Positions 9,163 through 29,082 of a stretch of 64,000 bases of DNA are shown piece after piece (within the stretch, counting starts at the first letter, position 1; every line of letters starts with the position of its first letter). The position numbers and the translations under genes were made by a program. The notes below the pieces were generated by a model. The model was not told the origin of the DNA and did no database searches. It saw nothing but the letters and a program-made list of their open reading frames with translations. This stretch comes from Paramecium tetraurelia. Its lineage: Eukaryota > Ciliophora > Oligohymenophorea > Peniculida > Parameciidae. The stretch is from positions 125,206 to 189,205 of the forward strand of contig NW_001799422.1 of NCBI RefSeq assembly GCF_000165425.1. Reading direction: 5' to 3'.

Positions 9163-9857
9163 GTTGAATACTTATTCAATAAACTAATTTAGAATTTCAT
9201 TATTGATCAATTTTATTTAGGATATTCTTAGGTTATAATTTTTATATAGTTTGAAAAAGAAGATTGAATCATTTATTTCATAAGAAATATTTTGAATTAA
9301 TGATCAGTTCATCTTTTAATGCGGAGCAGGACCTTTCAATATAACAAAGGCTGTTTAGTATTCATGTTATATTCACTTTTCATTAATCGAACATACTTTA
9401 ATCAATGATTTTATCTTATTCGAAATTCAGACTATAATAAAAGAATTTCATCAATTTTAATATTTAAATAAAATTTATTTATCAATTTAAATGACCACAT
9501 AATATCTTTGATGCTTTTCTTGAATCCATTGACAATTAATCATTACTATATAGTAAATTATACATTGATAATTACTTTTATCTACCTATTTCTATTCACA
9601 GGTTCTTAAAAAATTACAAGAAACACACTTAATTTAAATATTACTACCAATATATAATTTGAAAATTATTAAATTATCAATTAATTGAATTTCAATTTAT
9701 CGATCTTATCATATTATTGCTTTATCCTATGTCAATTAATTGAATCAGAAACACAACCAAAACTCTGCCTCAACAAAGAATAATATTTTTAGAGAAAAGT
9801 GAATAAAAAGACTAACAAATATTATTTGATTTAAATTATGAATAATTTATATTTCCA
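9163..9857. other. 695-nt stretch without a recognised gene
   Basis: AT-rich spacer between the ends of a plus-strand and a minus-strand gene. I see no long frame, RNA-like fold or repeat. Confidence 0.5.
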
Positions 9858-11000
9858 TCATAATTTTCTTAGATCAACTTCACACTCAATTGGCACGTGA
9901 TCACTTCCTTCAACAGTTAAGTTTATATCAGATACAGTGATAGCATCAGAAGCTTCCTTATTAATTATAAAATAATCTAATCTCCATCCCTTGTTTTATG
10001 ATCTAAAATAAACTACTTTGTTACCTGCTATTACTTCTTGCACTAAAAAAGCTATACTTAACCTCTTTTGGATGTAAATGTCTGAACGAATCAACCCATC
10101 CTTTTTACAAATAATTGGAAAATTGATCCCTTTCTTATAGAGTAAATCTAAAATCAGAATATGAAGATACCCAGCAGTCTTCTTGTTGCCAGCTGGATTG
10201 GAAAGATCTATTTCGTGGTGGGCTACATTAAGATCACCACATAAGATCGTAGGTTTTTTCTTTCGAAGTCCTTCAAGATAGTTTTAGAAATCAATATCCC
10301 ACTCCTTGGTTCTATAATCAAGTCTTTCCAATTTCTATCCTGAGTTTGGAACATAACATGAAACTAAATAAAACTGTTCGAATTCAGCTGTGAGTGTTCT
10401 TCCTTCTTGGTCATGCTTATCGACACCAATATCGCACTTCACTGATAATGGTTTGACTCTATTAAGAATTACAAATTTCAACTTACTTAGATGCTATAGC
10501 AACTCCACTGTATCCAGCCTTAGATTTACAAAAATTAAGATATAGAAAATAGTGTTTTCCAAATTTAGCGCCTAAATTTTCTTTGTCAAATACATCTTAA
10601 TCAGCTTTCAATTCATTTAAACAAATTATATCAAACTTACTTTTAAGCAATAATTTACTTTAGAGTCATTTAAATATTAAACAGCTGATTCATGCTTTGT
10701 GACAGCTCTGATTCCATTTATATTCCAACTAGAAATTTTTACTGTTGGAGTACTAAATCTTCCATCTCCTAAATCAAATTTTTCATCTGCTTGGTTAACT
10801 TATTTTACTTTTTTTTCCACTTCCTTTACTTTCTATTATTTCTCGATTTTTTATGCACTTTTCTTACCTTCATTATCCTCAGTTTTCTTTTTTCCCTTTT
10901 ATTGTTTCCCTTTTGATTTAACAACAAATTCCTCTTCTTCTTCATCATTTCTCTCTGGACTACTTTTCTATTTGCCCGATCTGCCCCTCCTTTTATCCAT
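9858..11000 (-). CDS. APEX1: AP endonuclease (exonuclease III / APEX1 family)
   Basis: Base-excision-repair endonuclease that cuts 5' of abasic sites. 348 aa. A basic/acidic N-terminal tail of about 95 residues ([15 protein letters not shown], lysine runs) resembles a nuclear-targeting region. The catalytic domain follows: SWNINGIR (Asn ligand), LNELK (metal-binding Glu; family usually LQETK), [20 protein letters not shown] (catalytic Asp and Asn), [15 protein letters not shown], and EGSDHVPI with the catalytic His. All active-site residues I can place are present. Four introns (23, 28, 23 and 22 nt) bring the length to 349 codons; one ends AAG. Start chosen as the first Met of the open frame. 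Confidence 0.93.
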
Positions 11001-11966
11001 TATTAATATAAAAATTTGAAAATAGATTATTGTAAAATCACTTATTCTGATGTAGATTCTTATATCTTATTGTCAAAACACTACAATAAAGATCTTTTAA
11101 ATTCAATAATAGCTTATGTTCAAAGTTATTTAGTGTCTTTAAATGATTTCTAACAATATAGTATAGCATAATTTAGAGTTGATAATCTCAATATTTGTTC
11201 AGGCTATTGATTTCAAAAAGTTAGTAATAGCAAATTACTTAACAAAGGAACCTTTATAAACCCCATTAGAATAGAAATAATCACATTTTGATTTTAATAT
11301 TTATTATATATTCTCCAGCCATTAAAGAAATGAGTTAAAAACTCCTGAAATATTTGAATCTTCCCAAAGGACGATGTCATAAATGGAAATTAAATTAGAA
11401 TTCAATAGTTACTTTTGTATTTCTTTAATGAATAAGAAAACTTTAAAATTAAGTTATGTAATTGAATTATAAATTGGAGTATCAACTTTCAAAGGTTTCA
11501 TGAAATACAATAAAAAACTAACTCCATATTTTTTATATTTTCTATAATGAATTGATTAATATAGGTCTAATAGTAATATATTAGAATTACTTATAACTCA
11601 CTTTATAAATTATCATAAACAATTAATCAGTAATAATCAAACTAATTAGAAAATTTAAATGAAGTTAATTCAAATTCTCAAAGTTTTTTTAATTTTATTC
11701 ATCATGAATCTACTATGTATATGTAATAGATTCATTGAGTACATAAAGATCAATTATATTTCTTTTCTAGTAGTTCTTCTGAATATATTAATTATATAAT
11801 TATATTATATAACATTTAAGTTTTATAGTCATGTCAAGATGAGAATTCCTTTTCAATTTTCTAGTATTGATATTAATGTTAAATTTGGATATCATTCTAA
11901 TATTAGTTTTGAAATTCTAAAAAAGTATATGCTCTTTGCATAAATAATTTAAATAACATAAAAATA
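11001..11966. other. 966-nt stretch without a supported gene
   Basis: The longest gene-poor stretch of the window. It lies between divergent genes. A plus-strand frame from about 11704 to 11970 could encode a 90-residue hydrophobic peptide, but its stop overlaps the ATG of the EF-hand gene and its composition is that of AT-rich noncoding DNA, so I do not call it. An imperfect hairpin (11706-11733) lies inside. Confidence 0.5.
11706..11733. repeat. Imperfect inverted repeat / hairpin
   Basis: Arms GAATCTACTA and TAATAGATTC pair at 9 of 10 positions around an 8-nt loop. It sits about 230 nt upstream of the EF-hand gene. Function unknown; could be chance in AT-rich DNA. Confidence 0.4.
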
Positions 11967-12313
11967 ATGAGCAATGCAAATGTAAAGGACATTTTGAAAG
12001 ATAAGAAAAAAGTGAGATTTGTAGCTGAAAGCGCATTTAAGTAAGTGGATAAGGATGGTAATTAAAACATTTATCTAAAACAAAGGTAGCGGATACCTTG
12101 AAAGACCAGAACTGGAAGAAGTTATGAATAATGTAGCAGCTGATTTGGGAGTTGAAGTATCACAAATTAAAATAACTATAGCCACCTACAAGTGAAGAAA
12201 TCGATGAAGTTTTAAAAGAATTAGATGAAAATGGAGATGGAAAATTATCAATTGATGAATTTTAAGTGTTAATTGAACAAGTACTTGAAATGATGGCTAA
12301 AGTTGAGGGTTGA
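11967..12313 (+). CDS. Small two-EF-hand calcium-binding protein
   Basis: 97 aa protein made almost entirely of one EF-hand pair. Loop 1 begins DKDGSGYLERPE and loop 2 DENGDGKLSIDE; both have acidic residues at positions 1, 3, 5 and 12 and Gly at 6, so both should bind calcium. Two introns: 28 nt (ends AAG, splitting loop 1 after Asp-Lys-Asp) and 25 nt (GTA..TAG). Removing them leaves 98 codons. No signal peptide or membrane segment. Resembles small calbindin/centrin-half proteins common in ciliates; partner unknown. Confidence 0.88.
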
Positions 12314-12589
12314 TATTGATAATATTTACATTTCTAATTATTCAATTATATGTTGTAGTTCAAGTAATAATATCAAAAAATATATATGAAGAACTTTATA
12401 ATTATTTTAAAATTGATACTTTAATAAAAATTAATGCTTTAATAAAAATTGATATTTATATTAAAAGTATGTTATGTTTAATAAATAAAATTTATTATAT
12501 TTGATGAGATTTATAAGTATCTTCTTTGAAATTTAAAACCAAATCTCTCTTTTCTTATATTCATAAATAAAATTATCAAACAAACTAAG

Positions 12590-13307
12590 ATGCCTTATTA
12601 CCCAGGATACAATCCCTACAGTGCTCCTTTAGGGCAATCTTTAGCTTATCCAAACACGTATGCATAGCCTGTAGCTTATGCTCCTGTTCAATATGCTGCC
12701 CCAATAGCATAATCATTTGTTTAGCCTGTTGCAATCTAACCAGTTATGCAATAATCCTACGTACCCTAACCTGTAGCTGTCCAATAAGTCGTGGCTTAAC
12801 CTGCTCAATAAACAATTCGTGGAGAATCAAGAGTGGAATATAGAGAATATCAGAGACAAGTCGTTGAAATGGAAACAGAAACAGTCTAAGTTTAAGTGCC
12901 AAAAACTAGATACGTGACAGATTATTATCCAATCGAATACCAAACAGAATACATTCCAAGGACTGTTTATGAACAACAAACAGAATACGTCCCAATTACA
13001 AAAACAGTCCCTAGAGTAGAATATGAAGCAGTGGAAAGATAAGTTTAAAGAGTAAATCATTTTTTTATTTTAGCAATAATAAGTTGTGGTTTAGCAACCA
13101 GTCGTTTAATAGTATGTGCCATAGCCAACCTAATATGTACAATAGCCAATTGTTTAATCTGTTGTCCAAAACCCAGTTATACAACCTGTTGTCCAACAAC
13201 CAATTTCATATTCATAAGTTAGACCCGTTCAAAGTTATGTCCCTTCTGCGTATCCAGCTCATACGGCTTAATACCCAACAAATTATAGAAATTTCAGACC
13301 ATTTTGA
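12590..13307 (+). CDS. Tyr/Val/Gln/Pro-rich repetitive protein (cortex-like)
   Basis: 231 aa low-complexity protein. Residues 1-70 are Tyr/Pro/Ala/Gln-rich. A central block of about 70 residues has short repeats of the type EYxPxxxxVxE, with YPIEYQTEYIP and EYVPITKTVPRVEY, reminiscent of the valine/proline and glutamate repeats of alveolate membrane-skeleton proteins (alveolins, articulins). The C-terminal third is a tandem of VxQPV(V)Q units. One 22-nt intron splits the central block from the VQP block. Many Gln codons are TAA/TAG. Assignment to the epiplasm or cortex is inference from composition only. Confidence 0.75.
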
Positions 13308-13354
13308 GCTATTATGCCATTATATAAAATATAAATAATTTAACTTAATTTTAA

Positions 13355-13562
13355 ATGTAAGCTGCATTAGCTGAAGCAATTAAAGAGGAATAATTCATGC
13401 TGTGTTTCAAAGAAAGTAAAGAATAGGCCCACTTTTAACTGTGTATGGATCTATTCGAAAGGAGTAAAGCCATTTCTTAAAGAGCATTCGTCAGGTATGT
13501 CAGATCAAGAAAATAGTGAAAATATTAAGAAATTTATGTTTAATTATCTATGTAAGAATTGA
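13355..13562 (+). CDS. Small conserved-looking protein, 61 aa
   Basis: Short gene with a 22-nt GTA..TAG intron; the two exons join to give 62 codons ending in TGA. Helical, charged, with two Cys in the first half (LCFKES..QLCMD) and no membrane segment. It follows the Tyr-rich gene by 47 nt in the same direction. Not recognised. The clean intron and stop argue for a real gene, but it is short. Confidence 0.5.
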
Positions 13563-13726
13563 TCTATTTTTCAATTGAAATTCTTCCTCGGAATATTAAA
13601 TATATCAAAAGTTAGTTCATACACCTACAAATTTCTATTTTAATTTTATTTTCTAATACGATTATATTAATATAATTTTCAGAAATTTTAGGGAGCTTAT
13701 TATTATTAATGAAGTTAAATATAATA

Positions 13727-15264
13727 TCATATTTTTTTTCCCATCATTTCAACTCTGTTTGCTTGTTCTCTTAATCTATCCAGTTCTCTTTACTCATCCT
13801 ACTTTTATTCCATTCTCAGATCAACCTATCTCAGCTTTTCTCTAATTTGCTCTCTTTTATATTCTTCTAATTATTTTTAATGTTTTATAGCCTCTTATTA
13901 ATCAATTTTTTTCTTTAGTTTCATATATGCTTGCTATTACTACATAGTTTCCTATTCATTCTTTACTTTTTCAATCTATCAATATACTAAAATATTACTT
14001 TTTCATCTTGTTCTTAAATTTTTCTTAAATATATGTTTCTTTTTTCCTCCAATTATAACATATTCATTTTCTTGACTTTCTCTCTATGTTTAGCTCTTCT
14101 TTCTGCTTCTTCCAACATGAACTACTCCTTAGATTTTGATTGACTTCTCTATTGCAATCTTAATTAGATATCCATCTCCTTTTCCATAAATTCTCTCCTT
14201 ACTTCTTCTTATTCATGTAACTTTACTTTAGCTGTATGCTTAATTTTTTCATTTTTAATTCTGTTTTTCTCTTCAATTGATAATTATCTTTCTTTTTATA
14301 ATTCTTAAAATTTGTATTGTTTTTCTGCAATTTTTTCTTCTTTTTTTTAAAAATCCTCTCTTAGTTTATTCAAACCTTCAATTTGACTTCTTTTAGCTTC
14401 TCTTTGCCTTTCTTTGGCTGATTAAGCCCTTTTTTAAGCAATTTCTTTTTTTGATTCTTGCTATTGCCTAAAGAACATTTATCTTTTAATTTCTTATTCC
14501 TCTTCTTCTTGTTTTCTAATTTAATATTCTTATTCTTTCTACTTTCCTTTCATTCTTTTTTCTCTTTCTAACTATTACTTTAGTTCCCTTTGTTATTACT
14601 CTCTCATAGCAGCTTGTTCTCTTCTTTGCTGCTCTTCAAACTCTAATTGCATTTTTCTTTCTTATTCTCTTTCAAAATAGACTTACTATTATTATCTATT
14701 TTTTCTTTATTCATCCAATTCTTTTTATCTTTTTTGTTTTGCAATATTTTCTTATTTCTCTTAAAACTCTTTTTACCTCTCCTCTTACATCCTTTTTCTC
14801 TTTTCCTCATATAACTACATCTTCTCTTCTCTTATTTAAGTCTACTCTTCTCTCTTCAACATCATCTCCTATAAATGTCTTTATCTTAGCTCCTCCATCT
14901 ATTTTCTCTTCTATACTTGATCCATAAATTTAGATGTAGTAGTGCTACTTGCTGGTCGAAGCAGTTTCAAACTGCATGTACTTTATTCGATCTTATTTCT
15001 TTTTTCCTTTTCAATTAAAGCCTCCCTATCCCTTATTAATGCATAGACTTTTTATTGTCTACGATATTCAAAGTGTTTATGGAAATCATCCAAATTCTCA
15101 TTTGTTAATGATTTCTCTTTTTTCATCATAGCCGAAAGTTAATCTTTATTAACACACAGTAACTCATTTTGAGCAATCCCTCTTTGCCTCATAACTTAAT
15201 TTGAGCGAGGACTGTCTATTATGCAATTTCTGTCAGCAGGATTGAAATTAATTAAGGATATCAT
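13727..15264 (-). CDS. Long basic/acidic coiled-coil protein
   Basis: 504 aa, mostly one continuous Glu/Lys/Arg/Gln-rich coiled coil (residues about 150-500), with most Gln codons TAA/TAG. The N-terminus has a less charged segment, SPRSNQVMRQRGIAQNEL, similar to a motif (SPRS..R.GI...EL) that precedes coiled coils in many protist basal-body/cilium proteins. One 23-nt intron (GTAATATT..TAG) is needed near the C-terminus to keep frame; the result is 505 codons. No enzymatic motif. Likely structural; a ciliary or cytoskeletal role is inference. Confidence 0.8.
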
Positions 15265-15471
15265 TATTTTTACTTAGTTCTTTAACTAATTAATAAAACT
15301 TACTTTTTAAAATTATTCAATTTTTCCTCGATTGCTTAAGAAACTCAATCAATTATAAGAAAAAGAATGAAATTTATTGAAATTTCAGAAAATCTTTAAT
15401 ACACTTTAAAACTAAAAAAATTTCTTATTTAAGATAACATATTATTTTTTCTGTTTTATATGATAATTGTT

Positions 15472-17483
15472 TCATTTCTCTTCTATGGATTTTAAAATTG
15501 ACATCAGATATTTAAGTCCTCCCATAATATTATTATCCATTTCTGCTTCTGGATTTTCAGAATCATCAGACAAATTCATTACATAATTGAAGTCAATCCA
15601 TTTGATTTGATACTTTTTGGAAATGTTATCCACAATGATTAAAATTGATGTACTTCGAAACAATCTAATTCAATCTAATATATGTATACCTCTTGCTGGT
15701 TTGAAGAGCCTCAATTAATTCCTAGATAAAATTAATGCATCCTTAGAGTGCTTCTCTATTAGGTTACTCAACTTGATTTGATTTAAAAACCTATTCAATG
15801 ATATCTTTCATTTTTTAATCATTTGTTATCCAATTATAAGCTTCAGAACCATTCTTGTTGATCGTTAAAACTCCATTTTGATCTCTTATTTTAATACCAG
15901 CTGCTCTAAAACCCATCAATACTTGATCACATAGACTAGCCTTTTTTATTTCTTTTTCTTTTTTTTCTTGTGTACAATTTGGATGATATGTTTTGTAGCC
16001 TATTTTTAAGTCCAATATTGATCCATTTTCTAGTCCATAAGTTAAATTTTCCTAAATTAGATATAATAAAATACCATCGAAATAGTACAAGCTTTTTCAT
16101 CTAGTGATATTAATTTAGGTAAGAATTTAATTAGCCTTTTATTTTCGTCATAATATGGATTATTAAGGTTAGTTAACGTAGAATAGAATTAGTATTCTTG
16201 CTTTTTTGTAGTTTTAATAATGATATTATCTTTAATCTGGAAAGCTTATAAATGTCCCCCTGAAATTAAATTGACTGTTTCTCCTAAAAACTGTTTTTAA
16301 TATTCCAATAATTCTTTTGAAGAGAGACATGTCCAAAATTATTTATGTTTATCTACAGTTGTTTACACTGCATTAATTCCACATTATCCAGGTTGAATAA
16401 TGGCTGGAAACTATTTAGGTACTCCTAATAATTATTCAAAGGTAGCGAGAGCACATTAAGCTGTGATATCAAGATTGTATCCGCCTTCAAGAACAGCCAA
16501 GACTCTAGGGCATAATTATTATAACTTTTCAGTCATATATTAATACCCTTATGGAGTATTATTAATACCGCCAAGAGGATCTCCCTTTGCTGAATCATAA
16601 CCAGCACTTATGATAATGAAATCTGGACCGAATTCCTTTATTATAGGACCTAATAATCTATCATATGCATAGACATAGTCATCATAACCTGGAGCATCGT
16701 TATCTTTTACATTCCAGCCAACATTCCAACCGACATTAATATTTTTATATTCTGCATCTTTTCTTCCTATCTTTACAGGATCTCCACTACCAGGATAGAA
16801 ACTACCACCATCATATCTATGAATAGATATCACCAAGGTATTTGGATCTTCATAAAATATGGACTCTGTTCCATCACAATGATGAACATCCCAATCAAAG
16901 ATAACAATTTTATTGACATTGTATTTTGCTCTTGCATATTTTGCAGCAACAGCAACATTGTTATAAACACAAAAACCATTTGGTTTGTTTTTATGTCCAC
17001 TGTGATGGCCAGGGGGTCGAACACTACAGAATCCATTTCTCCATTCTGCTTTCAGTATCTTATCAACTCCTTCCAATACTGCTTATACACATTTCCTAGC
17101 AGTCACGGCTGATGTTTTACATAGATATGTGTCATCAAAGTACTTGACATCTTTTGTTAACTATTCATTCCCAACAGCATTGAATAGTCCTTCTACAAAA
17201 TCTATATATTTTTCATCATGAACTAATCTCAAATGGTTTATATCACTTAAATAATTAACTAAACTGAATACCACTATTCAAATTATGACAACTATTCTAC
17301 TTTGTTCTTTAAATCTTTTGATGATAGATAATTTTAAATAGTTTTATCTATAGATTAAGTTCTTTATGGATTCTCACAGTGCTCTTTTGCTGAGAAATGG
17401 TTGTCAAATTCTTCACAGTGAATGAACCCCGTGATATATGTTTCTATAGTGAGTTTAGAGAACTCTTCCTAGATTTATTACAT
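15472..17483 (-). CDS. Fusion of a class II histone deacetylase and an inositol polyphosphate multikinase
   Basis: One continuous reading frame of 645 aa with two enzymes. Residues about 1-370 are a class II (HDAC6-like) lysine deacetylase: HCEEFDNH..ENPQR start, HLRLVHDEKY, RPPGHH (147), DWDVHHCDGT (188; metal Asp and His, usual GNGT is CDGT), SAGYDSAKGDPLGG, and EGGYN with the catalytic Tyr. Residues about 395-645 are an inositol polyphosphate kinase of the IPMK/IP6K fold: SGGH, QFYSTL, KFLPKL, SMENLTYG, ILDLKIGYKTYHP (476; PxxxDxKxG with Pro replaced), FRSTSIL (SSLL-like), KWIDFNYV (metal Asp) and a final GLKYLMSIL. No stop, start or promoter gap separates them. Introns 17246-17271 (ends AAG), 16052-16074 and 15665-15689; the remainder is 646 codons. 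The second intron lies inside the kinase part. Confidence 0.92.
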
Positions 17484-18095
17484 TGATAAATATTGAATTG
17501 AATAATAAGTGCTCATTCTTTTTATTTATAAATGGGGGGTAAATCTTTTAAAAAGATATTTAAATTATTAAATATAATTTTTCTTCCCCCTCATACAATT
17601 TAAAACATATTTAATTAACTAACAAAAAGTAATAATATAATTTCAATCTTAGTTCACCGTAACCAGAAGAAGTAATTGTCTTCAAATTTCCAACATATTT
17701 ATATGATCTATAGAGAATTATCTTTGAAAAAAATAAATATCGAATTTACAATTTAAATGCAGTCTGCAGAATTGTAATTTGGTATAATTAAGAATCTTTT
17801 AATTAAGTTATCCTAAAACCCTAAATAGTCATATATTTATACTCTATATTGTCTTCGATCTTGTAATCAACTCAGAGCATTCAATTTTTAAATCCTTAGT
17901 CATTACATCCTTATACTTCCCTTCATCTCTAAGGATTTGCGAAGGTCGATAGGATGTGAGAAGTCTTAAGCGTTTTCAACTGACTCTTTTAGCAATCTGA
18001 TAATGATATGCATCCAGGATCTTTTATCTAAAATTTCATTGTGTATTAGTATAATTAATGTGGATATTAATAATTAAATATATATTGTACAAATT
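17484..18095. other. 612-nt stretch without a recognised gene
   Basis: AT-rich spacer between the start of the HDAC fusion and the end of UTP7. A G6 run at about 17535 and a short C-rich run near 17587 stand out, but no frame or structured RNA is convincing. Confidence 0.5.
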
Positions 18096-19665
18096 TCAAG
18101 AAACTACTCTAATAAATTCTTTGCTTGGAATCTATTCTAATCTATCCAACAATTTAGTTTCAAACTTTTTCTTTTCCTTCTCAGCTCTTTTAACTCTTAG
18201 AGCATCTGATAACATTTCTTACCATTTAACTTATTATTTCTAATCTCTCTCTAATTCCTTGAGTTTCTCTCTTTTTCCAATTTTGTTTCTAAAATAATTG
18301 TATGAAATTTATACCTTCCTCTCATCTTTTTCTTTTGCTTCTTAATCTTTTTTGCTGCCTGTTCTTCAATTTATTTTTTTTATTCTTTTTCTATTATCAT
18401 TTTTGAAGTTCTATCAATTGTACCAATTCGATGTGATTAAAGAGAAATAGACTCTGGTGGCAACTATAAAATTAAATTTCATTAATAGTATACTTTTTCA
18501 AGTAATTATCTGACATTGGTTTCTAACCTTTGTTTTTTATTTTGTAATTCTGGTTATTCATATGTATCAAAGAATGCTTCACCACTTTCTGGTACTACTG
18601 TTTATTCATAACTATCGAAGGTACTCATTGCTAAATAGTCTTCATGTTTGATGAAATCAATATCACAAATCATTGAAGAAGCCTTATATCTTAAATAGGG
18701 TGTTTTTAAGTCGCCAATTAAACAGTTCTTCCACATAATGACATCTGTTCCTCTCCCTGCGGCTAATACTCCTTTATCACTTAATGCTAAGTTAGTTGCA
18801 TTGACAGCCACTTGAGATTATAATTTTTAAGTTCTAAGATCCCAGACCTTAACTGTTCCTTCTGATCCAGTTGTTATTAAGTGATTGCCATCTCGAGAGA
18901 AAGTCATAGACATCACTCCTCCTTTATGACACAACATGGATGTAAGTGAAGTCCCAGTATTAGGAGCGTACATTCTTACTACTCCCATTTGGTCTCCTAT
19001 TCCTAATATTGCATTGTTATTGTTTTATTTTAAACATAAAGGTGATGGAGTAGTTCTATAAGCTATAATCTTTCAATATTTTACTTGATATTATTTTTCC
19101 TTAAGTTATATCCTAATAGGTCAATTATCCATTTTAATTGAGGGCAGCCAACAAAAAGTGATAGGGCAAATACTCTAATTTGGTGGCTTATTTGCATTCT
19201 CGAATTTTATGGACTTCAACTCCTTTTGGATCGTAAATGTAGATGCAACTTTTTTGGGCTACTGCAAAATTTCTTTGGGCAATAGAAATTATGTCATAAC
19301 ATTTCTCTTTAACATCGAATTCACATTCTAATTATTTGTGTCTCCAATTAAAAGCAGCAATGTGACCAGATTCCCCTGCCAAATATGTGGTTTAAGGTGT
19401 CATTGAAAGCTTATATGGCCCTGATTTTAATTTTAGATTGATGATCTTGTTTTAATGATATAAGTTCTACATTTTGCACATTCTCTTCAGGTAAATAATC
19501 CTTAAAATTAGAAATCTTTAATAAAGGCCTTTCATCATCTATTTCTACACTCTATTAAAACTAAGGCTCAAGTAATTAAGCTATTTTTTATGTCTTCAAT
19601 TAAGTCGATTTGGTTTTGAATTCCTATTACTTAAGCTTAGCAGAAAGTATTTTATCCTTTGCCAT
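18096..19665 (-). CDS. UTP7: UTP7/WDR46, small-subunit processome WD40 protein
   Basis: Nucleolar WD40 protein needed for 18S rRNA processing; 488 aa. The family segments are in order: an N-terminal basic helix, LKSGPYKLSMT, LAGESGHIAAFNW, FAVAQKSCIYIYD, PYHFLLAA, ILGIGDQMGVVRMYAPN, SMLCHKGGV, GSEGTVKVWDLR, SDKGVLAAGRGTDVIMW, then the signature YEQPELQNKKQR and QLLEKLPPESI of the BING4/C-terminal domain, and a lysine-rich tail KKIKKQKKKMRGR. Four introns (25 nt ending AAG; 22, 30 and 26 nt ending TAG) leave 489 codons. It lies 154 nt upstream of the CCDC40 stop, same strand. Confidence 0.92.
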
Positions 19666-19819
19666 TTCACAAATTAAAAATATATATAATTATTAAATTA
19701 ACTTAGCAATTTATATTTATGTACATAGTTCTTTAAATGATGTATAAATTGTGATAAATTCAACAATAACCATGTAATATAGATGTATCTGATAAATATT
19801 TTAATGAAATTCATATATT

Positions 19820-22594
19820 TCATAATTCTAACAATGGGGTTAAGATCTCTTGTAATTATGGCTACTCATCAACCAGCTTATTTAATGCACTCTTGATATT
19901 ATTAGTGAAATTCTTTTATTCCTCAAGTTTCCTAATAATAAAACTCAAATTTACTATCTAATTTATTGTTCAGGAAAAGGTAGTCTTGGATTATTTAGCA
20001 ATTCCTCATATTTTCTAGCTTAGCATTATAATTGGCTTATTTTAAATAAATTCAAATGTTTCTCATTTTTTGCGTAGTATAATCTTTACTTATTCTCATA
20101 AGTCTCTTATTCCATTTATTATTATTTTTATGTGGCTTCCTAGATTTATTATTGGAGCTAGAGGTATATTCAATAAATATTACATTTTCAAGTTGTTCTT
20201 CTTATGCATTAATTCCTTGTTCAATCTTTTATCCATTCATTAGAGGTTTAATTTAATGTGTTCTTTAGTGTTTGTATTTATTTGTTAACTTATGATGTGT
20301 TATTGCTTGCTTAAACAGGAGGTAGTTTGAGATCTTTTGTTCCTGAGGAGGATTTATCTTTGTTGAGATACTTCAATTGGATAGTCTCTCTCTTAAAAAC
20401 AGTTCTCTCCATCTCTTTTATGATTTACTCTTAACTCTTCTTTTGTTCCTTTTATCTAAGTTCCATTTTATGTATTTCTTTTTGTAATAGCTTTAATTCA
20501 CTTTGACCAACATTTGGATCCAAAGCTTCTTGCATTTCTTTTTCCAATTAAATCTTTCTTTCCCATAATAAGATTTACTTTTCTGCCTCCATAATGTCAT
20601 TTAATAAATCTGCTTTGCTATCCTTTAATTTATCAATTTAGACTTCATATCTAACAGCTTCCTTCTCCAATTCTTTCAACTTCTCAAGAAATTCACTCTA
20701 AATATGATTATTTTCATTTGTTAATTTTTCTTATTTAAATTAGTATCTTGCTAAATCATCATTTAATTTATTCATATCATTTTACAGATTTTTAAGACTA
20801 TTTTTGATTTCTCTTATTTCTCTTTCATGAGATCTGTATTAAGAATTTAATCTCATTTTTTTATTTTCCAAAATAACTTGTTTATTTGATAATTCATCAA
20901 CCTCTGTGGAACATGTTTCATACTCTTTAGTTTTTTCAACCAACTAAGTTTGCTTCTTGATCCAATCTCTGTGCATGGCTTCACATTACTGAATCATTTC
21001 ATCGAATTGTCTTTTTAGATTAGACTTTGTTGCTTCTAAAGGTCCTCTGCTGACTTCTGAAGAGTTGTTTGTCAATTCATCATGAACCTTGTTTAATCTA
21101 CCAACTTCATGTTATTTTTTTTCATTCAATTCATGACCCTATTTGATTTAGACTTCATAAGTTGCAACAGTAATTTTCTTATCATCTCTTTCTTTAATAA
21201 CTGCAGCCTTTTTTAATTTTAATTATTCAATCTATTATTCTGTATTTAATTGATCAATTTTAACTCTAGCAATTTCATTATTAAGATTTTCTAATTCAAA
21301 TTGTCCTTCTCCTCAATTTCAGCTTAGATTATTTGGGCCTGCTTCAATAAATTCAAGGCAGTTTTTTCGATGGTAGTATTTTCGCTCTTTGAATCTAATA
21401 AGTCTTCCAATAAGCTTTTAGTTTCAGTATGTAATTTCATAATATTAGTTTCAATCAATTTCATCTATTCATCCACATTTCTTTATTCATTGTCAGTCTT
21501 TTTGGTTTCATTTTTCTGGTTTATTTAGAAGATTCATTTTAATAAAAGTACTTGGGCATTGAGTTTAGCCTACTCTTCAAGCAATTCTTGTCTCCTATTT
21601 TCTAAATTGGATTTTTGATTTTCCAATTTTCTTTTCATAGCTATCAAATCTTCTGATCTCGTATTTTCCTTTCTAATTTCATTATTAATTCCTTAGAGTT
21701 CAGTTCCTAATTAGATATTGACTTCTGATTCTTTTCTATTGTGATATTTAAATAACCATACTTATAGGCTTCTCTGATTTCTTATAAAGCGTTGTCCATT
21801 CTCTACATCCTGACTAAACTCTTCTACCATCTTTCCATAAGGTTCTTTTTAGATGCAATAATCTTTTCCATCTCAGCTTGAGCATCCTTCATTGTTTACC
21901 TAGCATTTTCAGTTTCCTTGCTTTGAGATATTAATTGATCCATCAATATTGTCTTTTGTTCTGTCAATCTCTTAATTTCTTCATTCATTTAATCAATCAA
22001 GTAATCTTATTTTTTCTTATCCTTCTCCAATCCTTACACATTTTCTTCTCCTCTATAAACAATTCGTCTAGTCTATTAGATTTCTGCTTGCATCTAATTA
22101 TTATAGTTCTCTATGGTGTGCAAAGTTTTTGTAAGTTTCGATAATTCATCTTGAGCTTTTAGATATTTTTTTCTAAGCTCGTCTACTTCTTTCTTCTTTT
22201 ACAAGTGGAGGTCATTAATGGTTTTCAGTTTCTGCTCGCTCTCAATTCTCAATTTTTATACAAAATTAAAGTTTTCATGTGCTTTTTCGAAATTTTATTA
22301 ATTCTCTGCTAACTATTATTATACACCATATAATCTAACACCTTTTATATTAATAATTTCAAGTACCAATATCTTCCTTTTCTCTATCAAGCTTTTTTAG
22401 TTAATCTTCCACTTCCACAAGTTCTAATTCTACTCTTGAATGCTCATCATCCAATTATTTTTGTAATGCAATTTGCAAACGGGCCAGCAAATGCTAATCT
22501 AATCGGATAAACAATTTACATGGTCTGCTGGTAAGAATGCCATTGGATCTTCCTCCAAATTCACTTAATCATCATTATTTTCATTGTCTGCCAT
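19820..22594 (-). CDS. CCDC40: CCDC40, axonemal molecular-ruler coiled coil
   Basis: Coiled-coil protein that with CCDC39 sets the 96-nm repeat of motile cilia and anchors inner dynein arms and the nexin-dynein regulatory complex. About 870-890 aa, similar to family length. Diagnostic segments: RLYGVQQQLAENQ near the N-terminus (human has NLYGVQQHLAQLQ), MERWQKSLVRMQRMDNAL (human QQWASSLVGMKHRDEA), and the C-terminal LQEILTPLL where human has a PQFQEALHKV end. Several introns are needed, including 25 nt (ends AAG) and 26 nt. Start MADNEN with an acidic leader. Its start is 83 nt from that of the DHHC gene on the other strand. Confidence 0.85.
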
Positions 22595-22677
22595 TTTAAA
22601 TAATAAAATATTAATAAATACAATAAGAGTATTAACAGTTGTAAAATTTAGTTTCTGAAATCCAATATTATTAATAA
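22595..22677. promoter_or_regulatory. 83-nt divergent promoter gap (CCDC40 / DHHC)
   Basis: AT-rich spacer between two divergent starts; must hold both promoters. Position-based inference. Confidence 0.35.
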
Positions 22678-23713
22678 ATGAACAAAAATAGCATCAATAA
22701 GAATGGATGCACTCAATCACCCACTTTACATCAACTAATAACTTACATACTTTATTTTCCAAACATACTCAACTGTTTTTTCCTAATATCTTTACTTGAT
22801 TACTATGTATATTGATTTATCAAATTTAGGCAATTCACTTCACCATTTTAGGTATCTTAACTTTGATGTCTATAATTTCTAGTGTGAAAACTACTTTGAG
22901 TCGTCCCATTGATTAGTTTATAATTTAACAATATAAGGCGCAAGTTTAAGGGTAAGTTTGATCTTTATTTTCAGATAACATTTTGACAATGGAAGCAATA
23001 AATTAGAGTCATTTTGTGAAATATGCAATGCCTATGTATAGGAGAACACTAAACATTGCAGAAATTGTGACAGGTAAGCCTCATAATAATCAGTATTAGA
23101 TGTTGTTAGGGTTTTGATCATCACTGTAAATGGATAAATAATTGTGTAGGAAATCTCAATTATAATCTTTTCATCTTTATGATTACTTCAACTTTGTTTC
23201 TCTTCATGTACACAATGCTCATCTACATCTCTATCATAGTGTTGTATCAAACAAATTATGAGACACTTCTCATAGACAATGAATTATAGAAATTTGTACA
23301 ATTTTATCATATTTTTGAAAGCATTTTACAAAAGAAAATGATCTCAACGTGAAATACATATTATCCATAGTAATGCTAGGGGACTCCACATTAATTGTGA
23401 TTTTAATGTTGCAATTACTTCTCTTTCACATTTATTTGATCATAAAAGGCACAACAACTTATGATTTCATAATGAAAAGCCAATTCAAAAAAATACTGCC
23501 TCAATTTCAAATAGGACCTTAAACTTTTCAGAATGCATCTAAAACTACCTAAAAAGTGATTCATGAAATATATGGATTAGCTAAGAAAAATACATTGTAT
23601 CTTTTTCATTTATTATTTTTAGAGTTGAGATCACTTAAAATTAACATAAAATGATTCCAGATAAACAAACAATTCAAGATGAAACTATCATAGAAAATCA
23701 AATTTAGGCATGA
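22678..23713 (+). CDS. DHHC palmitoyltransferase
   Basis: Membrane S-acyltransferase, 303 aa, four hydrophobic segments. The N-terminus MNKNSINKNG leads into TM1 and TM2; between TM2 and TM3 lies the Cys-rich domain CEICNAY..HCRNCDRCC followed by GFDHHCKWINNCVG (catalytic DHHC). After TM4 comes KGTTTYDF, the family TTxE-type motif. Five introns (23, 23 ending CAG, 26, 26 ending AAG, 26 nt) leave 304 codons; one splits CDR|C in the zinc-binding region. The C-terminal tail is Gln/Lys-rich. Substrates unknown. In ciliates such enzymes acylate cortical and ciliary membrane proteins; that role here is inference. Confidence 0.93.
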
Positions 23714-23955
23714 TATTCGTAGTATTATCCATAAAGATATGAATATTTATATTAACTATTCATTGATTCTCTTTCCCTATCATCTTTTAAGTTGTTATTT
23801 AGACTTACTTGAGTCTTTAATAAGAAAATTAATTAAAAGGTCATTTAATTTTAATTTAATTAAATAATTAATGTTAAATAGCTCGTTATATTAATCGCCA
23901 TAAACAAAAAATTTGAAAAGTGTCGTTGCTCCCCAATCCTCAATAACAGATAGGA

Positions 23956-24769
23956 ATGGTAATTGATGATTTAAAACAAATAGTTTCCCCTAGCAGAGCC
24001 AAGATAGCTTAGCTTAGTGAAAAGTTATCAGGATTACAGATTGAAGAGGATAAAACATTGAAAAAGGAAACTTATGAATCGAAGTTGAAGCTTTTTGATG
24101 AGAAATTTTAAAAGGCTTATTAAAATGATTTAAGCAGACTCAAAATTGTTCAAGACCAATTAAGCAAAATTGAAGAAGGATTAACTAACGAAAAAATAAT
24201 TAGAGATGTTTGAATTCAAATTTAATTTATAGTCAAGGGATGATAATTTTAAGTAGAGAGACCTAAAGGGTTTAGAGCAGAATATAGTTAAGGAATTACA
24301 AAAAGATAAAGCATTGAGAAGAGAATCAGAATAGAAAGTGGCCAGATTAATTGATGAAAAGTCCTATTAATTCAGACTGGAATTGGCCAAATAAAAAAAA
24401 ATGAGAGAGGAAACAGAAGAATAGTATTCTAATGAAATCGGAGAAAGAGTCTTAAACTTAGCAGAAGATGTGTAAAATGAAAGAAGAGAAAGGTATTTCT
24501 AATAAAAATTAATTCTTAGAGAAGCTGCATGTTAAGAACTAATTAGAAGATTTGGAGAATCTGTGTTTTAAATACAGGAGACATTGACTAAGGAGAAACG
24601 ATAAAGACAGGAATCTCAATCTTAGATGTATAGAATGATAGATGAGATGAATAATATTTTACATTTATAGTTATAAGAAGAGAAAGCTCAAAGAGAAGCT
24701 ACGGAAGAAACTATGCTTCGACTATTGGATGAGACATGTAACAGAGTTGAGAACTCTCTAAGAAGATGA
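23956..24769 (+). CDS. SF-assemblin / beta-giardin-like striated-fibre protein, frame interrupted
   Basis: Coiled-coil filament protein of striated rootlets and fibres, about 265 aa, with a non-helical leader (MVIDDLKQIVSPSRAKIAQL) then continuous heptads and no long breaks, as in the SF-assemblin family. The frame does not run through: upstream sequence ends at a TGA 10 codons after an A6 run (24191-24196), while the downstream frame continues cleanly. Either one A is extra, or a 28-nt intron with an unusual GTT start (24148-24175) is spliced. The read-through alternative keeps a better heptad pattern, so I favour the one-base break. It ends ...NSLRR at TGA 24767-24769. Confidence 0.75.
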
Positions 24770-24829
24770 TGAGATTTCTATTATATAGTTAATTACATTA
24801 TTATAAATAGTGAATATTTAATAGTATAC

Positions 24830-25255
24830 TCAACTTTATACGCCATTTAATAGTCGAAGACCAAGTTTAAAAAATAATTAATCTTCTTCGTCAGATATTT
24901 AATTCAAATTTTCAATGAAATGATTAGGTTATTCAATTAAAGGCATTTCAGCTTCTTTGGAGGATACTTAATAGACGTTTTTATTGATTTATTTCTATTT
25001 TTTACTTTCTAACTCTATGCCTTAATCATTAGTCTTATTTTTAAAATTTGAATTATCAATAGCCGAAGTGTTCCGATCAAAATAAGAAATAAGCCATGAT
25101 TTTGATCCAAAAGTATAATCATGAGTTTTATTTAATTATTTTTTGTTCTTTCTTTTTTTTGAAGTTTTTTATTTTGCGATAGAATATAACAAATAAGCAC
25201 AAGAAATAGCAGTAACTCCATAAAAGATCTATTGTTAAGTGTATTACATAAGCAT
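24830..25255 (-). CDS. Small single-pass membrane protein, unknown
   Basis: 141 aa, intronless. One hydrophobic segment at residues about 12-30 (YGVTAISCAYLLYSIA) is followed by a lysine-rich stretch and a polar tail with acidic patches (SDEEDQ). It could be a tail or signal-anchored protein. It shares no family I recognise. TGA at 24830-24832. It converges on the SF-assemblin gene with 60 nt between stops. Confidence 0.55.
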
Positions 25256-25437
25256 GTATGTAATGAGAATGAATATAAATATTAAATTGTATGATAAGAA
25301 TTAATCTTTAATTAATATCTATATATATAGAATTTCAACATATTCTGTTTTAATCTAATCAATAATATAAGGAGTTATTTAATTGATAAAATAATTATAA
25401 GGCTTGTTCTCATATTTTTAATCATAAGAAGATGTTC

Positions 25438-25803
25438 TCAAGGTTTTCTGTAGGATCCTAGATACTCAGTGATTTTCAATAGTTTTTTCGTCATGTTTTT
25501 CCTCAGTTGCAATTTTTTGTTTTTTTCTTTTAATATTTTCTCTTGTTTTGGTATTTCAAGTTGTTCGTTGCATTATGTTTTGACTTGTTATCTGTTGGTA
25601 TAAGAGGTGTTTTTAATTTATTTTAAATTAGATCCTTACTAGACTTATGTTACAATGATTGGTTTCACAACAGGGAAGTGCCTTTGCAAGAGAATGATTC
25701 TGGGAGAACCCATAGGTAATTGAGAAGGACATCTAAAATGAAATTTAGAAGGATAATGAATAGAGTCAGTTTATTAAGATCCTTCTACAAGTGAATAATG
25801 CAT
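25438..25803 (-). CDS. Unknown basic protein, 121 aa
   Basis: Single open frame from ATG at 25803 to TGA at 25438-25440 with TAA/TAG as Gln. Basic, with a hydrophobic-Pro patch in the middle (IILLQRHFPVVKPIIV) and a Lys/Glu/Gln-rich C-terminal helix. No domain recognised. It lies 47 nt downstream of the NDUFB7 stop on the same strand. Additional upstream exons cannot be excluded. Confidence 0.5.
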
Positions 25804-25850
25804 GTAAATAATAAATAATGTTTTATTTTGTACTAAATTTGATTATTTTC

Positions 25851-26311
25851 TCAATACAGGACTGGTGAATTAAAATGATTTTTTTCTAATTCGGCTGAGA
25901 CACCTTCTTGACTAGCATACCATGGATTGGCAGTATAAATATTTTGAACTGGTACGGCTAGGGAATATTGATAGCTAAAATATAATGAGATGAAGTTAAT
26001 ACGCTGCTTTAGCACAATTTAGATATTCCCTTTTTTCTTTGTAGCAGTCTCCACCCCTAAGATAGAAGTCAGGAAATACCAATGATCCAAGGTTTAGTCG
26101 ATAGCTGCAAGAGCCGTTTTGAATAGATTGTCTGTTTTGATTTATTGGCACTTGAAGAATGGGACATAAAAATTGACGCATCTATCTCTAAAAGCCAATG
26201 GAATTCTATGAGCATCCAATTCCTCAGGTGAGTACACGTATCCATCTTAAAATATAGTAGGAGGACACACTTACCTGGTCTTTCATAATACTTTTGATGA
26301 TGGTGAGACAT
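25851..26311 (-). CDS. NDUFB7: NDUFB7, mitochondrial complex I CHCH subunit
   Basis: Accessory subunit of NADH:ubiquinone oxidoreductase on the intermembrane-space side. 126 aa. The twin Cx9C motif is seen as CVNFYVPFFKC and CYKEKREYLNC, the second preceded by Trp, with PLAFRDR in front as in the family. Three introns (29 nt ending AAG, 23 and 28 nt ending TAG) leave 127 codons; without them the two Cx9C halves fall in different frames. It has no N-terminal presequence, as expected for Mia40 import. It starts 33 nt from the stop of the next upstream gene on the same strand. Confidence 0.85.
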
Positions 26312-26344
26312 TGTTTTATTACTTAATTTAATAATAATTTATAA

Positions 26345-29082
26345 TCATTTACTTATTTCCGCTATCCATTCTTTTGATTTAGCCAATTACTCTGCATCCT
26401 GACTCAGAGGTATAGTATACTTAAGATGCTAATATAGATTTTTGTTCAGTTAAGTTTAATTGTAAATTCCAATCAACACAGTTTTTTTGAAACCAGAATC
26501 TTGAGGCCATTGATTCTCATTACTTTACAAAGCAATACTCAATTCCTCAATCTCCCCGATTTTGTGAATGTAAATCAGAATGAAGCAAAATTGTTTGCCT
26601 CCATTGAAATGTTATTTATAAATCCTAATCAATTCAGAGACTGAGTAGGTAATGATGGGTTCTCCAACCATTTAATCTCCATACATACTATTGCCAAACC
26701 TTTAGGCAACCTAAATGTATTGAGTGCTTGGAATTAAACAGAGAATTCTGGGCTATTACTTTGGTAGCTCATCCAATTTGATTTTGTTAGTCCATTTTCT
26801 CTGTTACTTTTTCAATCTGTGATCTCTGATTCGAATATGGAATTTGTGTTCTAGACATTTAGATATAGAAATACCATTATTATCATCAATATTAGGCAAG
26901 GAGGTCTTGGATTATACAATGGAGACCAAGTTGTTTTTAAATTTGCTCATTACCCAAGGACTGAACAGAACACTTAATTATTTTTGGTCTTAATTTCTCT
27001 TCCCCTGTATAAACTTATTTGCTTCCTTGTTTTTATTGATGATATCATGTATAGGTTATGCTCTAAAATTATCCAATCTCTAAAATTGTCTAGGCTTTTA
27101 TTATGGAGTAGTAAACTATTTAGGGAGAGCATCAAATCTTGTATCTTTGTCATTGTGCAATTGATCCCCGTAATCTTTAACAAAGGGAGTGTCAGATTGA
27201 ACACTAATTTGACTGTACTTCTCATAATGCATATGATGATATCCAATATCGAGTATAGTTTTATCATGATCCAAGATCCCTTCATTGTAGGCTACCTTCA
27301 AGGTTTATTCAAGTAATTTAATAATATCATCTTGGATTTGTGGGTATTGGATGGTATATTTGATTGCAATTTCGACTTCCTTTATAATGTCTTAATTTTG
27401 GACTTAAGTATTTTCAAGAGATTGGGCATTTGAATTGGCAGCAGAGGCGAAAGTTGATTAGGGGATTGATTTCAATTGGATAGTTGAGGCTAAGGAATCA
27501 GGATTATTAAATTTAGCAGTGTATTTTTGTAATGGCGATCTCAAAGATTTATCATAAGTCATAGCTGGAGAGGCAAATCGTTTAGCATTCCAGAAATAAT
27601 GATTCTAATCAACAACATTCTTGGTGAAAGTCAAGTCTACCATTTGAATGTTATCACAGGATTTATCACTCTTCTTACACAATTGAACATTGGTTATCAA
27701 GAGAATGATTATGTTGTCTCCATCAGTTTTATAATCAATGGATAACAATTGCTTGCATTAATTGATCATTATCAATAACATTTTCTCATTTTCATTTTCA
27801 TATTCATCCTGACAATACAATTTCATTTATTTGGTAGAACATGGATAACTTATGGATATCTCCAGATCATATTCAGACTTGTCCAAATATACTTTTGCTA
27901 TTCTAACATTTATAGTCAACAGTTCTGATTTCTATTCAACCAGTAAGGCACTCTTTAAGAATGCATATAGACTATAGAGAATGCCATGTTTGTTTCCTAC
28001 AAGTTTTTCTGGAATGCCCTCTTCGAATTCGAGTTGAATAAGATTGAAATGCTCTTAGAGTCGATTAACCATAGATTCAATTACATTCACAACATAGTTC
28101 TTCACTAAATCAAACAATTTACTTACAAAAAAATTCATCATTCTAAACTGACTGGTATTTAATTTGTTGAAAATCATGATTTAAAATGGTCATGGCATCT
28201 ATTTACTGTTTTAATAGTCTACAATCCGTAGTGCATTATCCCAATATACTGAGATCACTCTCCTTCACCACTTTGAATGCTCTTAGGTTGTTCCATTTCT
28301 GATAGTCCTGACATAATAGGTTATACAGTTAATCTATTTGTTGAGACAATTTTGTAAAGAGTTCAACATCACCACAACTAAACTAGGATTATGTCAATAC
28401 GAAGTCAGAGTTATATTGTTCCAAGGTATAATATTTGCTATTGATAGTTATTTAATTCATTTTCTTCTTACGTATAGTATTTTCCAATTTCCTTTATAAT
28501 TCATTATCAAATTATTTTACATTATTATTACTATAGATAATGTTTGCTTCACTATTTATCATAAAGACATCTATAGGCAATTGCTCAAACACATTCTCCT
28601 TCTGATGCTAAAGATATTCCTAGAAATAAAATGATATAAAGAATCTTCGCTTTATAACTTCAAGATATCGAGACAACATAATCAATCCGAATCCCAAGTA
28701 CAATCCATTCACTGACCTAACCATTATCATCAAAAAAGGTATTTGGTTTGGCCAATAAGGCACGAATATTTGGTTGATAAAAAATGAACTCAGCAAGGCA
28801 TGATTCTAATTTTAAAGAAGCAGCTCGGGGAATACTAACAAAACCTATAATTAACTTTGATTGTAATACTCTTAAGAAATAAATTAATTTATTATGATTT
28901 TTTAAAATAGCTTTTAAAATCAATGTCATTAGAATTGATCCAATATTTATTATGCTTCTATCAAATGCCATCAATAAGAGAATGGAAGGGTACAAACACA
29001 ACCCACTGAATTTTGATCGCTGATATGCTGTTTCAGTCTTTATTTGAACAAAGTTTGCCAACAATGAAATCTCGTCAATCAT
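26345..29082 (-). CDS. Membrane sensor-like protein, possibly a degenerate histidine kinase
   Basis: Large protein (about 880-900 aa). Residues 1-160 are strongly hydrophobic with about six membrane segments, interrupted by a 25-nt intron (GTATTACAATC..TAG). Then a PAS-like stretch (LPIDVFMINSEANIIYSNN) and a helical region containing LNHDFQQ, where histidine kinases carry the phospho-accepting His. Downstream, HGILYSLYAFLKSALL resembles an ATPase N-box but lacks its two Asn, and I cannot find glycine boxes. The layout (TM bundle, PAS, kinase-like core) is like ciliate hybrid kinases, but catalysis looks lost. Further introns occur toward the C-terminus. Identification tentative; the membrane N-terminus is solid. 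Confidence 0.45.

What the first reader, a model, noticed from the sequence alone, without database searches (positions are those of the whole stretch)
15472..17483. Histone deacetylase fused in frame to an inositol polyphosphate multikinase
A single 646-codon frame carries a complete class II HDAC (RPPGHH, DWDVHH, EGGYN) followed directly by a complete IPMK-type kinase (LDLKIG, FRSTSIL, IDFNYV). I translated the junction base by base (16021-16560): no TGA, no new start, no spacer. In animals, class I HDAC complexes are activated by inositol tetrakisphosphate, the product of IPMK, so a protein carrying both activities would make its own cofactor next to the deacetylase. Here the deacetylase is class II, for which no inositol-phosphate dependence is established to my knowledge. 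I do not know of a described protein with this architecture.
Basis: partly seen in the sequence, partly recalled or inferred. Interest (0 to 1): 0.88.

Follow-up and report, generated by a model that had tools for sequence, protein, structure and literature searches.

The report
Ciliate deacetylase fused to inositol kinase
A ciliate gene really does join a histone-deacetylase enzyme to an inositol-phosphate kinase in one predicted protein, but the same pairing was described in another ciliate, Tetrahymena, in 2008, so this is a further member of a known kind rather than a new architecture.

Summary
On the minus strand, once three introns of 23-26 nt are removed, one TGA-free frame encodes an HDAC domain (E 2e-90) followed by an inositol polyphosphate kinase domain (E 2e-26). 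A duplicate on another contig keeps both domains, the linker and the three intron positions at 75% identity, with dN/dS 0.18 on each domain and 0.27 on the linker.

The claim of an undescribed architecture fails: Tetrahymena Thd2 is a class II HDAC with an Ipk2-like domain that acts on new histones in the micronucleus. This is most likely its Paramecium counterpart.

The "makes its own cofactor" idea is not supported: the two arginine positions of the class I inositol-phosphate site are Pro and Asp in 2 of 2 fused copies. I favour a chromatin-targeted bifunctional protein whose kinase product acts on other partners. New but modest: the fusion was retained after duplication, and the two clear class II HDAC loci found in this genome are both fused.

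The parts
15472..17516 (-). HDAC-IPK fusion gene, ATG 17516 (or the conserved ATG 17483) to TGA 15474-15472, 4 exons
17272..17516 (-). exon 1 (N-terminus of HDAC domain)
17246..17271 (-). intron 1, 26 nt, GT-AG; same position in paralogue (26 nt)
16075..17245 (-). exon 2: most of HDAC domain, linker and start of kinase; the junction is inside this exon
16432..17381 (-). HDAC domain, residues 46-353, class II/HDAC6-like; RPPGHH, DWDVHH, Zn-Asp and catalytic Tyr motifs present (span includes intron 1)
16288..16431 (-). linker, residues 354-401, dN/dS 0.27 against paralogue; its end towards the kinase is my choice, since the Pfam match starts at 470
16052..16074 (-). intron 2, 23 nt, inside kinase; same position in paralogue (28 nt)
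15690..16051 (-). exon 3 (kinase, DLKIG motif)
15665..15689 (-). intron 3, 25 nt; same position in paralogue (22 nt)
15472..15664 (-). exon 4 (kinase C-terminus, RSTSIL and WIDF motifs, stop TGA)
15490..16083 (-). Pfam IPK match, residues 470-651 (span includes introns 2 and 3)

Best explanation
It is the Paramecium-type counterpart of Tetrahymena Thd2: a bifunctional chromatin enzyme with an N-terminal class II (HDAC6-like) zinc deacetylase and a C-terminal inositol polyphosphate kinase, made from one spliced mRNA. The deacetylase most likely removes deposition-related acetyl groups from newly assembled histones (reported for Thd2 by others; inferred here). The kinase is carried to the same place and makes higher inositol phosphates or pyrophosphates locally. 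Its product most likely acts on other chromatin machinery, such as class I HDAC complexes or remodellers, rather than on the attached deacetylase, which lacks the known inositol-phosphate site. Shown here: the fused reading frame, both domains' signature motifs, its retention in a duplicated block, and constraint on both domains. Inferred: the single mRNA, orthology to Thd2, both activities, nuclear location and partners.
For: One TGA-free spliced frame with both Pfam domains. Second copy at C190 with the same domains, linker and three intron positions, inside collinear duplicated blocks: window about 9.7-29 kb against C190 about 291.5-312 kb, inverted. dN/dS 0.177 for residues 12-353 (HDAC), 0.178 for 402-656 (kinase), 0.268 for 354-401 (linker), dS 0.83 overall. 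HDAC motifs RPPGHH, DWDVHH, GYDS, EGGY and kinase motifs DLKIG, TSIL, WIDF present in 2 of 2 copies. Closest solved HDAC is HDAC6. Thd2 carries an IPK2-like domain (PMC5854132, passage); it localises to the micronucleus and its deletion leaves deposition acetylation on micronuclear H3/H4 (PMC7339932, passages). Class I arginine positions: fused copies P and D in 2 of 2, while the 9 class I-like loci of the same genome have R at the first position in 8 of 9 and R at the second in 4 of 9.
Against: No transcript, protein or activity data. No Tetrahymena sequence is in the collections I could search, so orthology to Thd2 rests on matching architecture and class, and Thd2's domain order is not stated in the passages I saw; Tetrahymena is reported to have two class II HDACs. 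The HDAC6-like catalytic domain would equally suit tubulin or another cytosolic substrate. The kinase's PxxxDxKxG motif has Gly for the Pro (GSILDLKIG). The Pfam match begins at residue 470 and the profile matches to PDB at about 466-471; only two weak PDB matches (E 0.007 and 0.0095) reach upstream, from about residue 421, so the start of the kinase (402-469) rests mainly on motif likeness recalled from memory.
Confidence: 0.75

Rival explanations
1. Cytosolic or ciliary deacetylase: the HDAC6-like domain deacetylates alpha-tubulin or other cytosolic proteins, and the fused kinase ties this to inositol-phosphate and calcium signalling.
For: Best solved relative is HDAC6; the loop reads GDPLGG as in HDAC6 domain 2, not GDPKGG as in domain 1 (alignment; the specificity role of that residue is recalled).
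Against: The Tetrahymena class II HDAC with this kinase domain is micronuclear and acts on histones. HDAC6 similarity alone does not fix the substrate: Clr3 and HDA1 score close behind.
Confidence: 0.15
2. Self-activating enzyme: the kinase makes an inositol phosphate that activates its own deacetylase in cis.
For: The two enzymes share one chain; class I HDAC complexes are activated by InsP4, InsP5 and InsP6 (PMC4848466, passages). In that paper the R265A mutant of HDAC3 still bound inositol phosphate (Kd 0.3 to 0.6 uM) and kept 24% of the activation, and R270A in HDAC1 had a milder effect, so loss of that arginine alone is not an absolute bar.
Against: HDAC3 R265, reported as important for activation, is Pro here; the second arginine (R301, number recalled) is Asp here, in 2 of 2 copies. 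The class I pocket lies between HDAC and co-repressor. The enzyme is class II.
Confidence: 0.08
3. Two neighbouring genes merged by a lost stop codon or by an assembly or prediction error.
For: No RNA evidence was available; DNA alone cannot exclude transcripts ending early. Absence of TGA over 119 codons is also seen in one of the two other frames. The paralogue has Met residues at 340, 380 and 442, before the kinase match, that could serve as starts.
Against: A second locus keeps the same continuous frame, with dN/dS 0.27 and differences 13/5/19 by codon position through the linker. The window copy has no Met between 319 and 472.
Confidence: 0.02

Closest known systems
Tetrahymena thermophila Thd2 (Smith et al. 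2008, Eukaryot Cell 7:471-482, doi 10.1128/EC.00409-07; paper itself not seen)
   Same: Class II HDAC with an IPMK/Ipk2-like kinase domain in a ciliate (stated in a citing paper).
   Different: Thd2 is reported as alternatively spliced (recalled abstract; PMC2612030, cites the paper as the only published case, as of 2008, of splicing that affects a Tetrahymena reading frame). Here intron-2 retention would give unrelated tails in the two copies. Two paralogues here. Sequence comparison not possible with these tools.
HDAC6 (class IIb deacetylase)
   Same: Best solved match, E 2.4e-61 against a single-domain chain (6uo7); same catalytic motifs and GDPLGG loop.
   Different: HDAC6 has two catalytic domains (two stretches matched in 5g0h); this has one plus a kinase.
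IPMK / IP6K (Pfam IPK family)
   Same: IPK domain over the Pfam cut-off (93.8 against 22.2 bits); DxKxG, TSIL and IDF motifs.
   Different: Fused to HDAC; G replaces P in PxxxDxKxG; subfamily unresolved.
HDAC1/3 co-repressor complexes regulated by inositol phosphate
   Same: Link inositol phosphates with deacetylases.
   Different: Class I; use arginines that are absent here.

Membership tests
Class II zinc HDAC | HDAC domain closer to HDAC6/Hda1/HDAC4 than to HDAC1/2/3/8 | tested here: met
   none of the 60 hits shown (of 137) is HDAC1, 2, 3 or 8; they are HDAC6, HDAC15, clr3, HDAC10, HDA1, HDAC4/7 and HDAC-like amidohydrolases and deacylases.: a class I paralogue of the same genome (C220) gives HDAC1/2/3/8, clr6 and RPD3 in the 60 shown of 136, plus one chain labelled Histone deacetylase 7
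Class II zinc HDAC | Catalytic His pair, zinc ligands, catalytic Tyr | tested here: met
   motifs present in 2 of 2 copies; activity not tested
IPK family (IPMK/IP6K/IP3K) | Pfam PF03770 over the gathering score | tested here: met
   93.8 bits against 22.2
IPK family (IPMK/IP6K/IP3K) | PxxxDxKxG, S/TSxL and IDF motifs (recalled definitions) | tested here: inconclusive
   DLKIG, TSIL and WIDF present, but G in place of P
IPMK subfamily | 6-/3-kinase activity on InsP3/InsP4 | not testable with these tools
   sequence is about equally near IP6K and IPMK
Thd2-type HDAC-IPK protein | Class II HDAC and IPK domain in one ciliate polypeptide | tested here: met
   (predicted polypeptide); definition
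Thd2-type HDAC-IPK protein | Sequence orthology with Thd2 | not testable with these tools
   no Tetrahymena genome in the collections; the Smith et al. paper is not held
Thd2-type HDAC-IPK protein | Micronuclear location, removal of deposition acetylation | not testable with these tools
   reported for Thd2, inferred here
Inositol-phosphate-activated class I HDAC | Arginines at HDAC3 positions 265 and 301 (301 recalled) | tested here: not met
   P and D in 2 of 2 fused copies

The most novel reading that the evidence does not exclude
The fusion couples deacetylation to inositol-phosphate metabolism by a site or reaction not seen in class I HDACs: the kinase product, or pyrophosphorylation by it, tunes the attached class II deacetylase in cis, so that removal of deposition acetyl groups tracks phosphate or energy state.
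Probability: 0.1. Interest if true: 0.75.

Novelty: new member of a known kind. Interest (0 to 1): 0.35.

Why it matters
The case extends an architecture described in Tetrahymena to what is very probably Paramecium, and shows that it survived duplication with similar constraint on both halves. That suggests the physical link itself is selected. It offers a natural experiment on why inositol phosphate kinases associate with chromatin enzymes, and it speaks against the simple idea that the fused kinase feeds a class I-type pocket on its own deacetylase.

Tried and rejected
Merged-gene artefact: rejected because of the C190 paralogue, with RNA evidence still missing. Cis activation through the known pocket: not supported. 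Relatives in genome contigs and viral contigs: 218 and 38 pattern matches, none a relative by tblastn; uninformative, since these collections hold prokaryotes and viral contigs. Other Paramecium species or Tetrahymena could not be searched. Papers: ten searches. No listing showed a title on a Paramecium HDAC-IPK protein, but listings were partial where many papers matched (20 of 112, 15 of 1,323, 12 of 18, 10 of 11), and only titles and abstract starts were seen except for the papers whose passages are cited. PMC10707265 and PMC3823935 were searched inside for terms: the first had one hit, Cryptomonas paramecium, which is not relevant, and the second had none.

Full report
What is there. The window lies in a 69 Mb genome of 231 contigs. 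Frames that stay open only if TAA and TAG are read as Gln, TGA as the stop, introns of 22-28 nt in the two fusion genes, and 24-35% GC per 2 kb point to Paramecium; the genus name is my inference. The gene is on the minus strand. With three GT-AG introns of 26, 23 and 25 nt removed, it reads 656 aa from ATG 17516 or 645 aa from ATG 17483, ending in TGA at 15474-15472, with no in-frame TGA. I started the paralogue's frame at the equivalent of 17483, which therefore looks like the better start.

Domains. Pfam finds Hist_deacetyl at residues 46-353 (E 2.2e-90) and IPK at 470-651 (E 1.7e-26), and no third family at E up to 0.001. The deacetylase is nearest HDAC6 among solved structures (E 2.4e-61 against a single-domain chain), followed by other class II enzymes; 60 of 137 hits were shown. 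The kinase is nearest an inositol hexakisphosphate kinase (4o4d, E 2e-10) and an inositol polyphosphate multikinase (5w2g, E 4e-9); that these are the Entamoeba and human proteins is recalled. A two-sequence profile gave the same order, so the subfamily is open. The motifs I checked for both enzymes are present in both copies, except that PxxxDxKxG has Gly for Pro.

Is the fusion real? The strongest evidence is the duplicate at G000:C190, about 302.9-304.9 kb. It has 74.7% protein identity over 641 aligned codons, the same three intron positions with different intron sequences (26, 28 and 22 nt against 26, 23 and 25), and one internal gap of four residues, in the HDAC. It sits in a block collinear with about 9.7-29 kb of the window, on both sides of the gene, so it is a segmental or whole-genome duplicate (I compared only C190 290.0-318.9 kb with window frames starting below 45 kb, so the full extent is unknown). 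Counting by the Nei-Gojobori method in a script, dS is 0.83 overall and dN/dS is 0.177 for residues 12-353 (338 codons), 0.268 for the linker (48 codons) and 0.178 for the kinase (255 codons); differences by codon position are 121/64/226. Both halves have been kept as protein since the duplication, joined by sequence that also changes as coding sequence does. Points on the other side: absence of TGA in the 119 codons 354-472 is not telling by itself, since one of the two other frames has none either; and the paralogue has Met residues at 340, 380 and 442 that could in principle serve as internal starts, whereas the window copy has none between 319 and 472.

Genome context. The HDAC model matches 15 stretches at 13 loci (the tool calls such counts lower bounds). 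Two are the fused copies. Nine look class I: one (C220) was tested against PDB and gave HDAC1/2 first; the other eight I assign by motifs. Two (C137, C68) are divergent. I tested only C137 against PDB: its best hit is HDAC6 at E 8e-17 and it carries DLDAHQGNG, which I recall as the HDAC11/class IV motif. If those two are class IV, every class II HDAC found here is fused to the kinase; if C137 and C68 are class II, as the best PDB hit would suggest, that statement fails. The IPK model matches nine stretches at five loci: the two fusions and three stand-alone genes; one of these, C201, was nearest IPMK structures. Matches to InsP5 2-kinase (1, partial), ITPK1-type kinase (2) and PPIP5K (2) also exist, so the wider inositol-phosphate pathway seems to be present.

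Is it new? Not as an architecture. [quoted passage not shown] 2008 (passage). PMC7339932 describes Smith et al.'s Thd2 as micronuclear and as removing deposition-related acetylation, with the knockout affecting micronuclear morphology and H3 processing; it has no hit for 'inositol' (passages). That the protein in the first paper is Thd2 follows from the shared citation. I could not open Smith et al. itself. I recall its abstract saying that the major splice form contains the IPK domain; PMC2612030 cites it as the one published case of splicing affecting a Tetrahymena reading frame (passage). In PMC8024741 the first figure in the Tetrahymena row is 2, which I take to be the IPK family though I did not see the column headings; the terms 'histone deacetylase' and 'fused' have no hit there. 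I saw no title on the Paramecium gene in ten searches of this library, which does not exclude one.

How it may work. In class I complexes the inositol phosphate sits between HDAC and co-repressor, and R265 of HDAC3 (R270 of HDAC1) contributes to activation: R265A kept 24% of the activation and bound only twofold more weakly, and R270A had a milder effect (PMC4848466, passages). At that position 8 of 9 class I-like loci here have Arg and one has Lys; the fused copies have Pro in 2 of 2. At the second position (R301 in HDAC3, number recalled) 4 of 9 class I-like loci have Arg and 5 of 9 Gln; the fused copies have Asp in 2 of 2. The fused deacetylase thus lacks both arginines of the class I pocket. 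The best reading is co-delivery: the deacetylase domain works on new histones, and the kinase supplies inositol phosphates at the same place for other chromatin proteins. The activities, the place and the partners are inferred.

Verdict. Interest 0.35.

Noticed in passing
window about 9700-29000 and G000:C190:291500-312000: Collinear inverted duplicated block (whole-genome-duplication type); neighbouring open frames match at identities from about 61% to 99%.
   Followed up: partly
window 16708-16743 (-), residues 250-261 of the fusion: A four-residue tandem repeat (NVGWNVGW) in the HDAC domain of the window copy, single in the paralogue.
   Followed up: no
window 15916-16074 (-): If intron 2 were retained, the window copy would end in a lysine-rich tail (KKKKKKKQKR) that looks like a nuclear signal; the paralogue gives a short unrelated tail, so it is probably meaningless.
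   Followed up: partly
L020, L021, L022: The three stand-alone IPK genes (C201, C226, C209) each lie near a CCT-chaperonin-like ORF, so they are probably duplicates of one gene (the family name is recalled).
   Followed up: no
L024, L025: Divergent HDACs on C137 and C68; C137 shows DLDAHQGNG, which I recall as class IV (HDAC11-like), although its best PDB hit is HDAC6.
   Followed up: partly
L002, L004, L005, L006, L023: Five class I-like HDACs have Gln where HDAC1/3 have the second inositol-phosphate-contacting Arg, so their regulation by inositol phosphate may differ.
   Followed up: no
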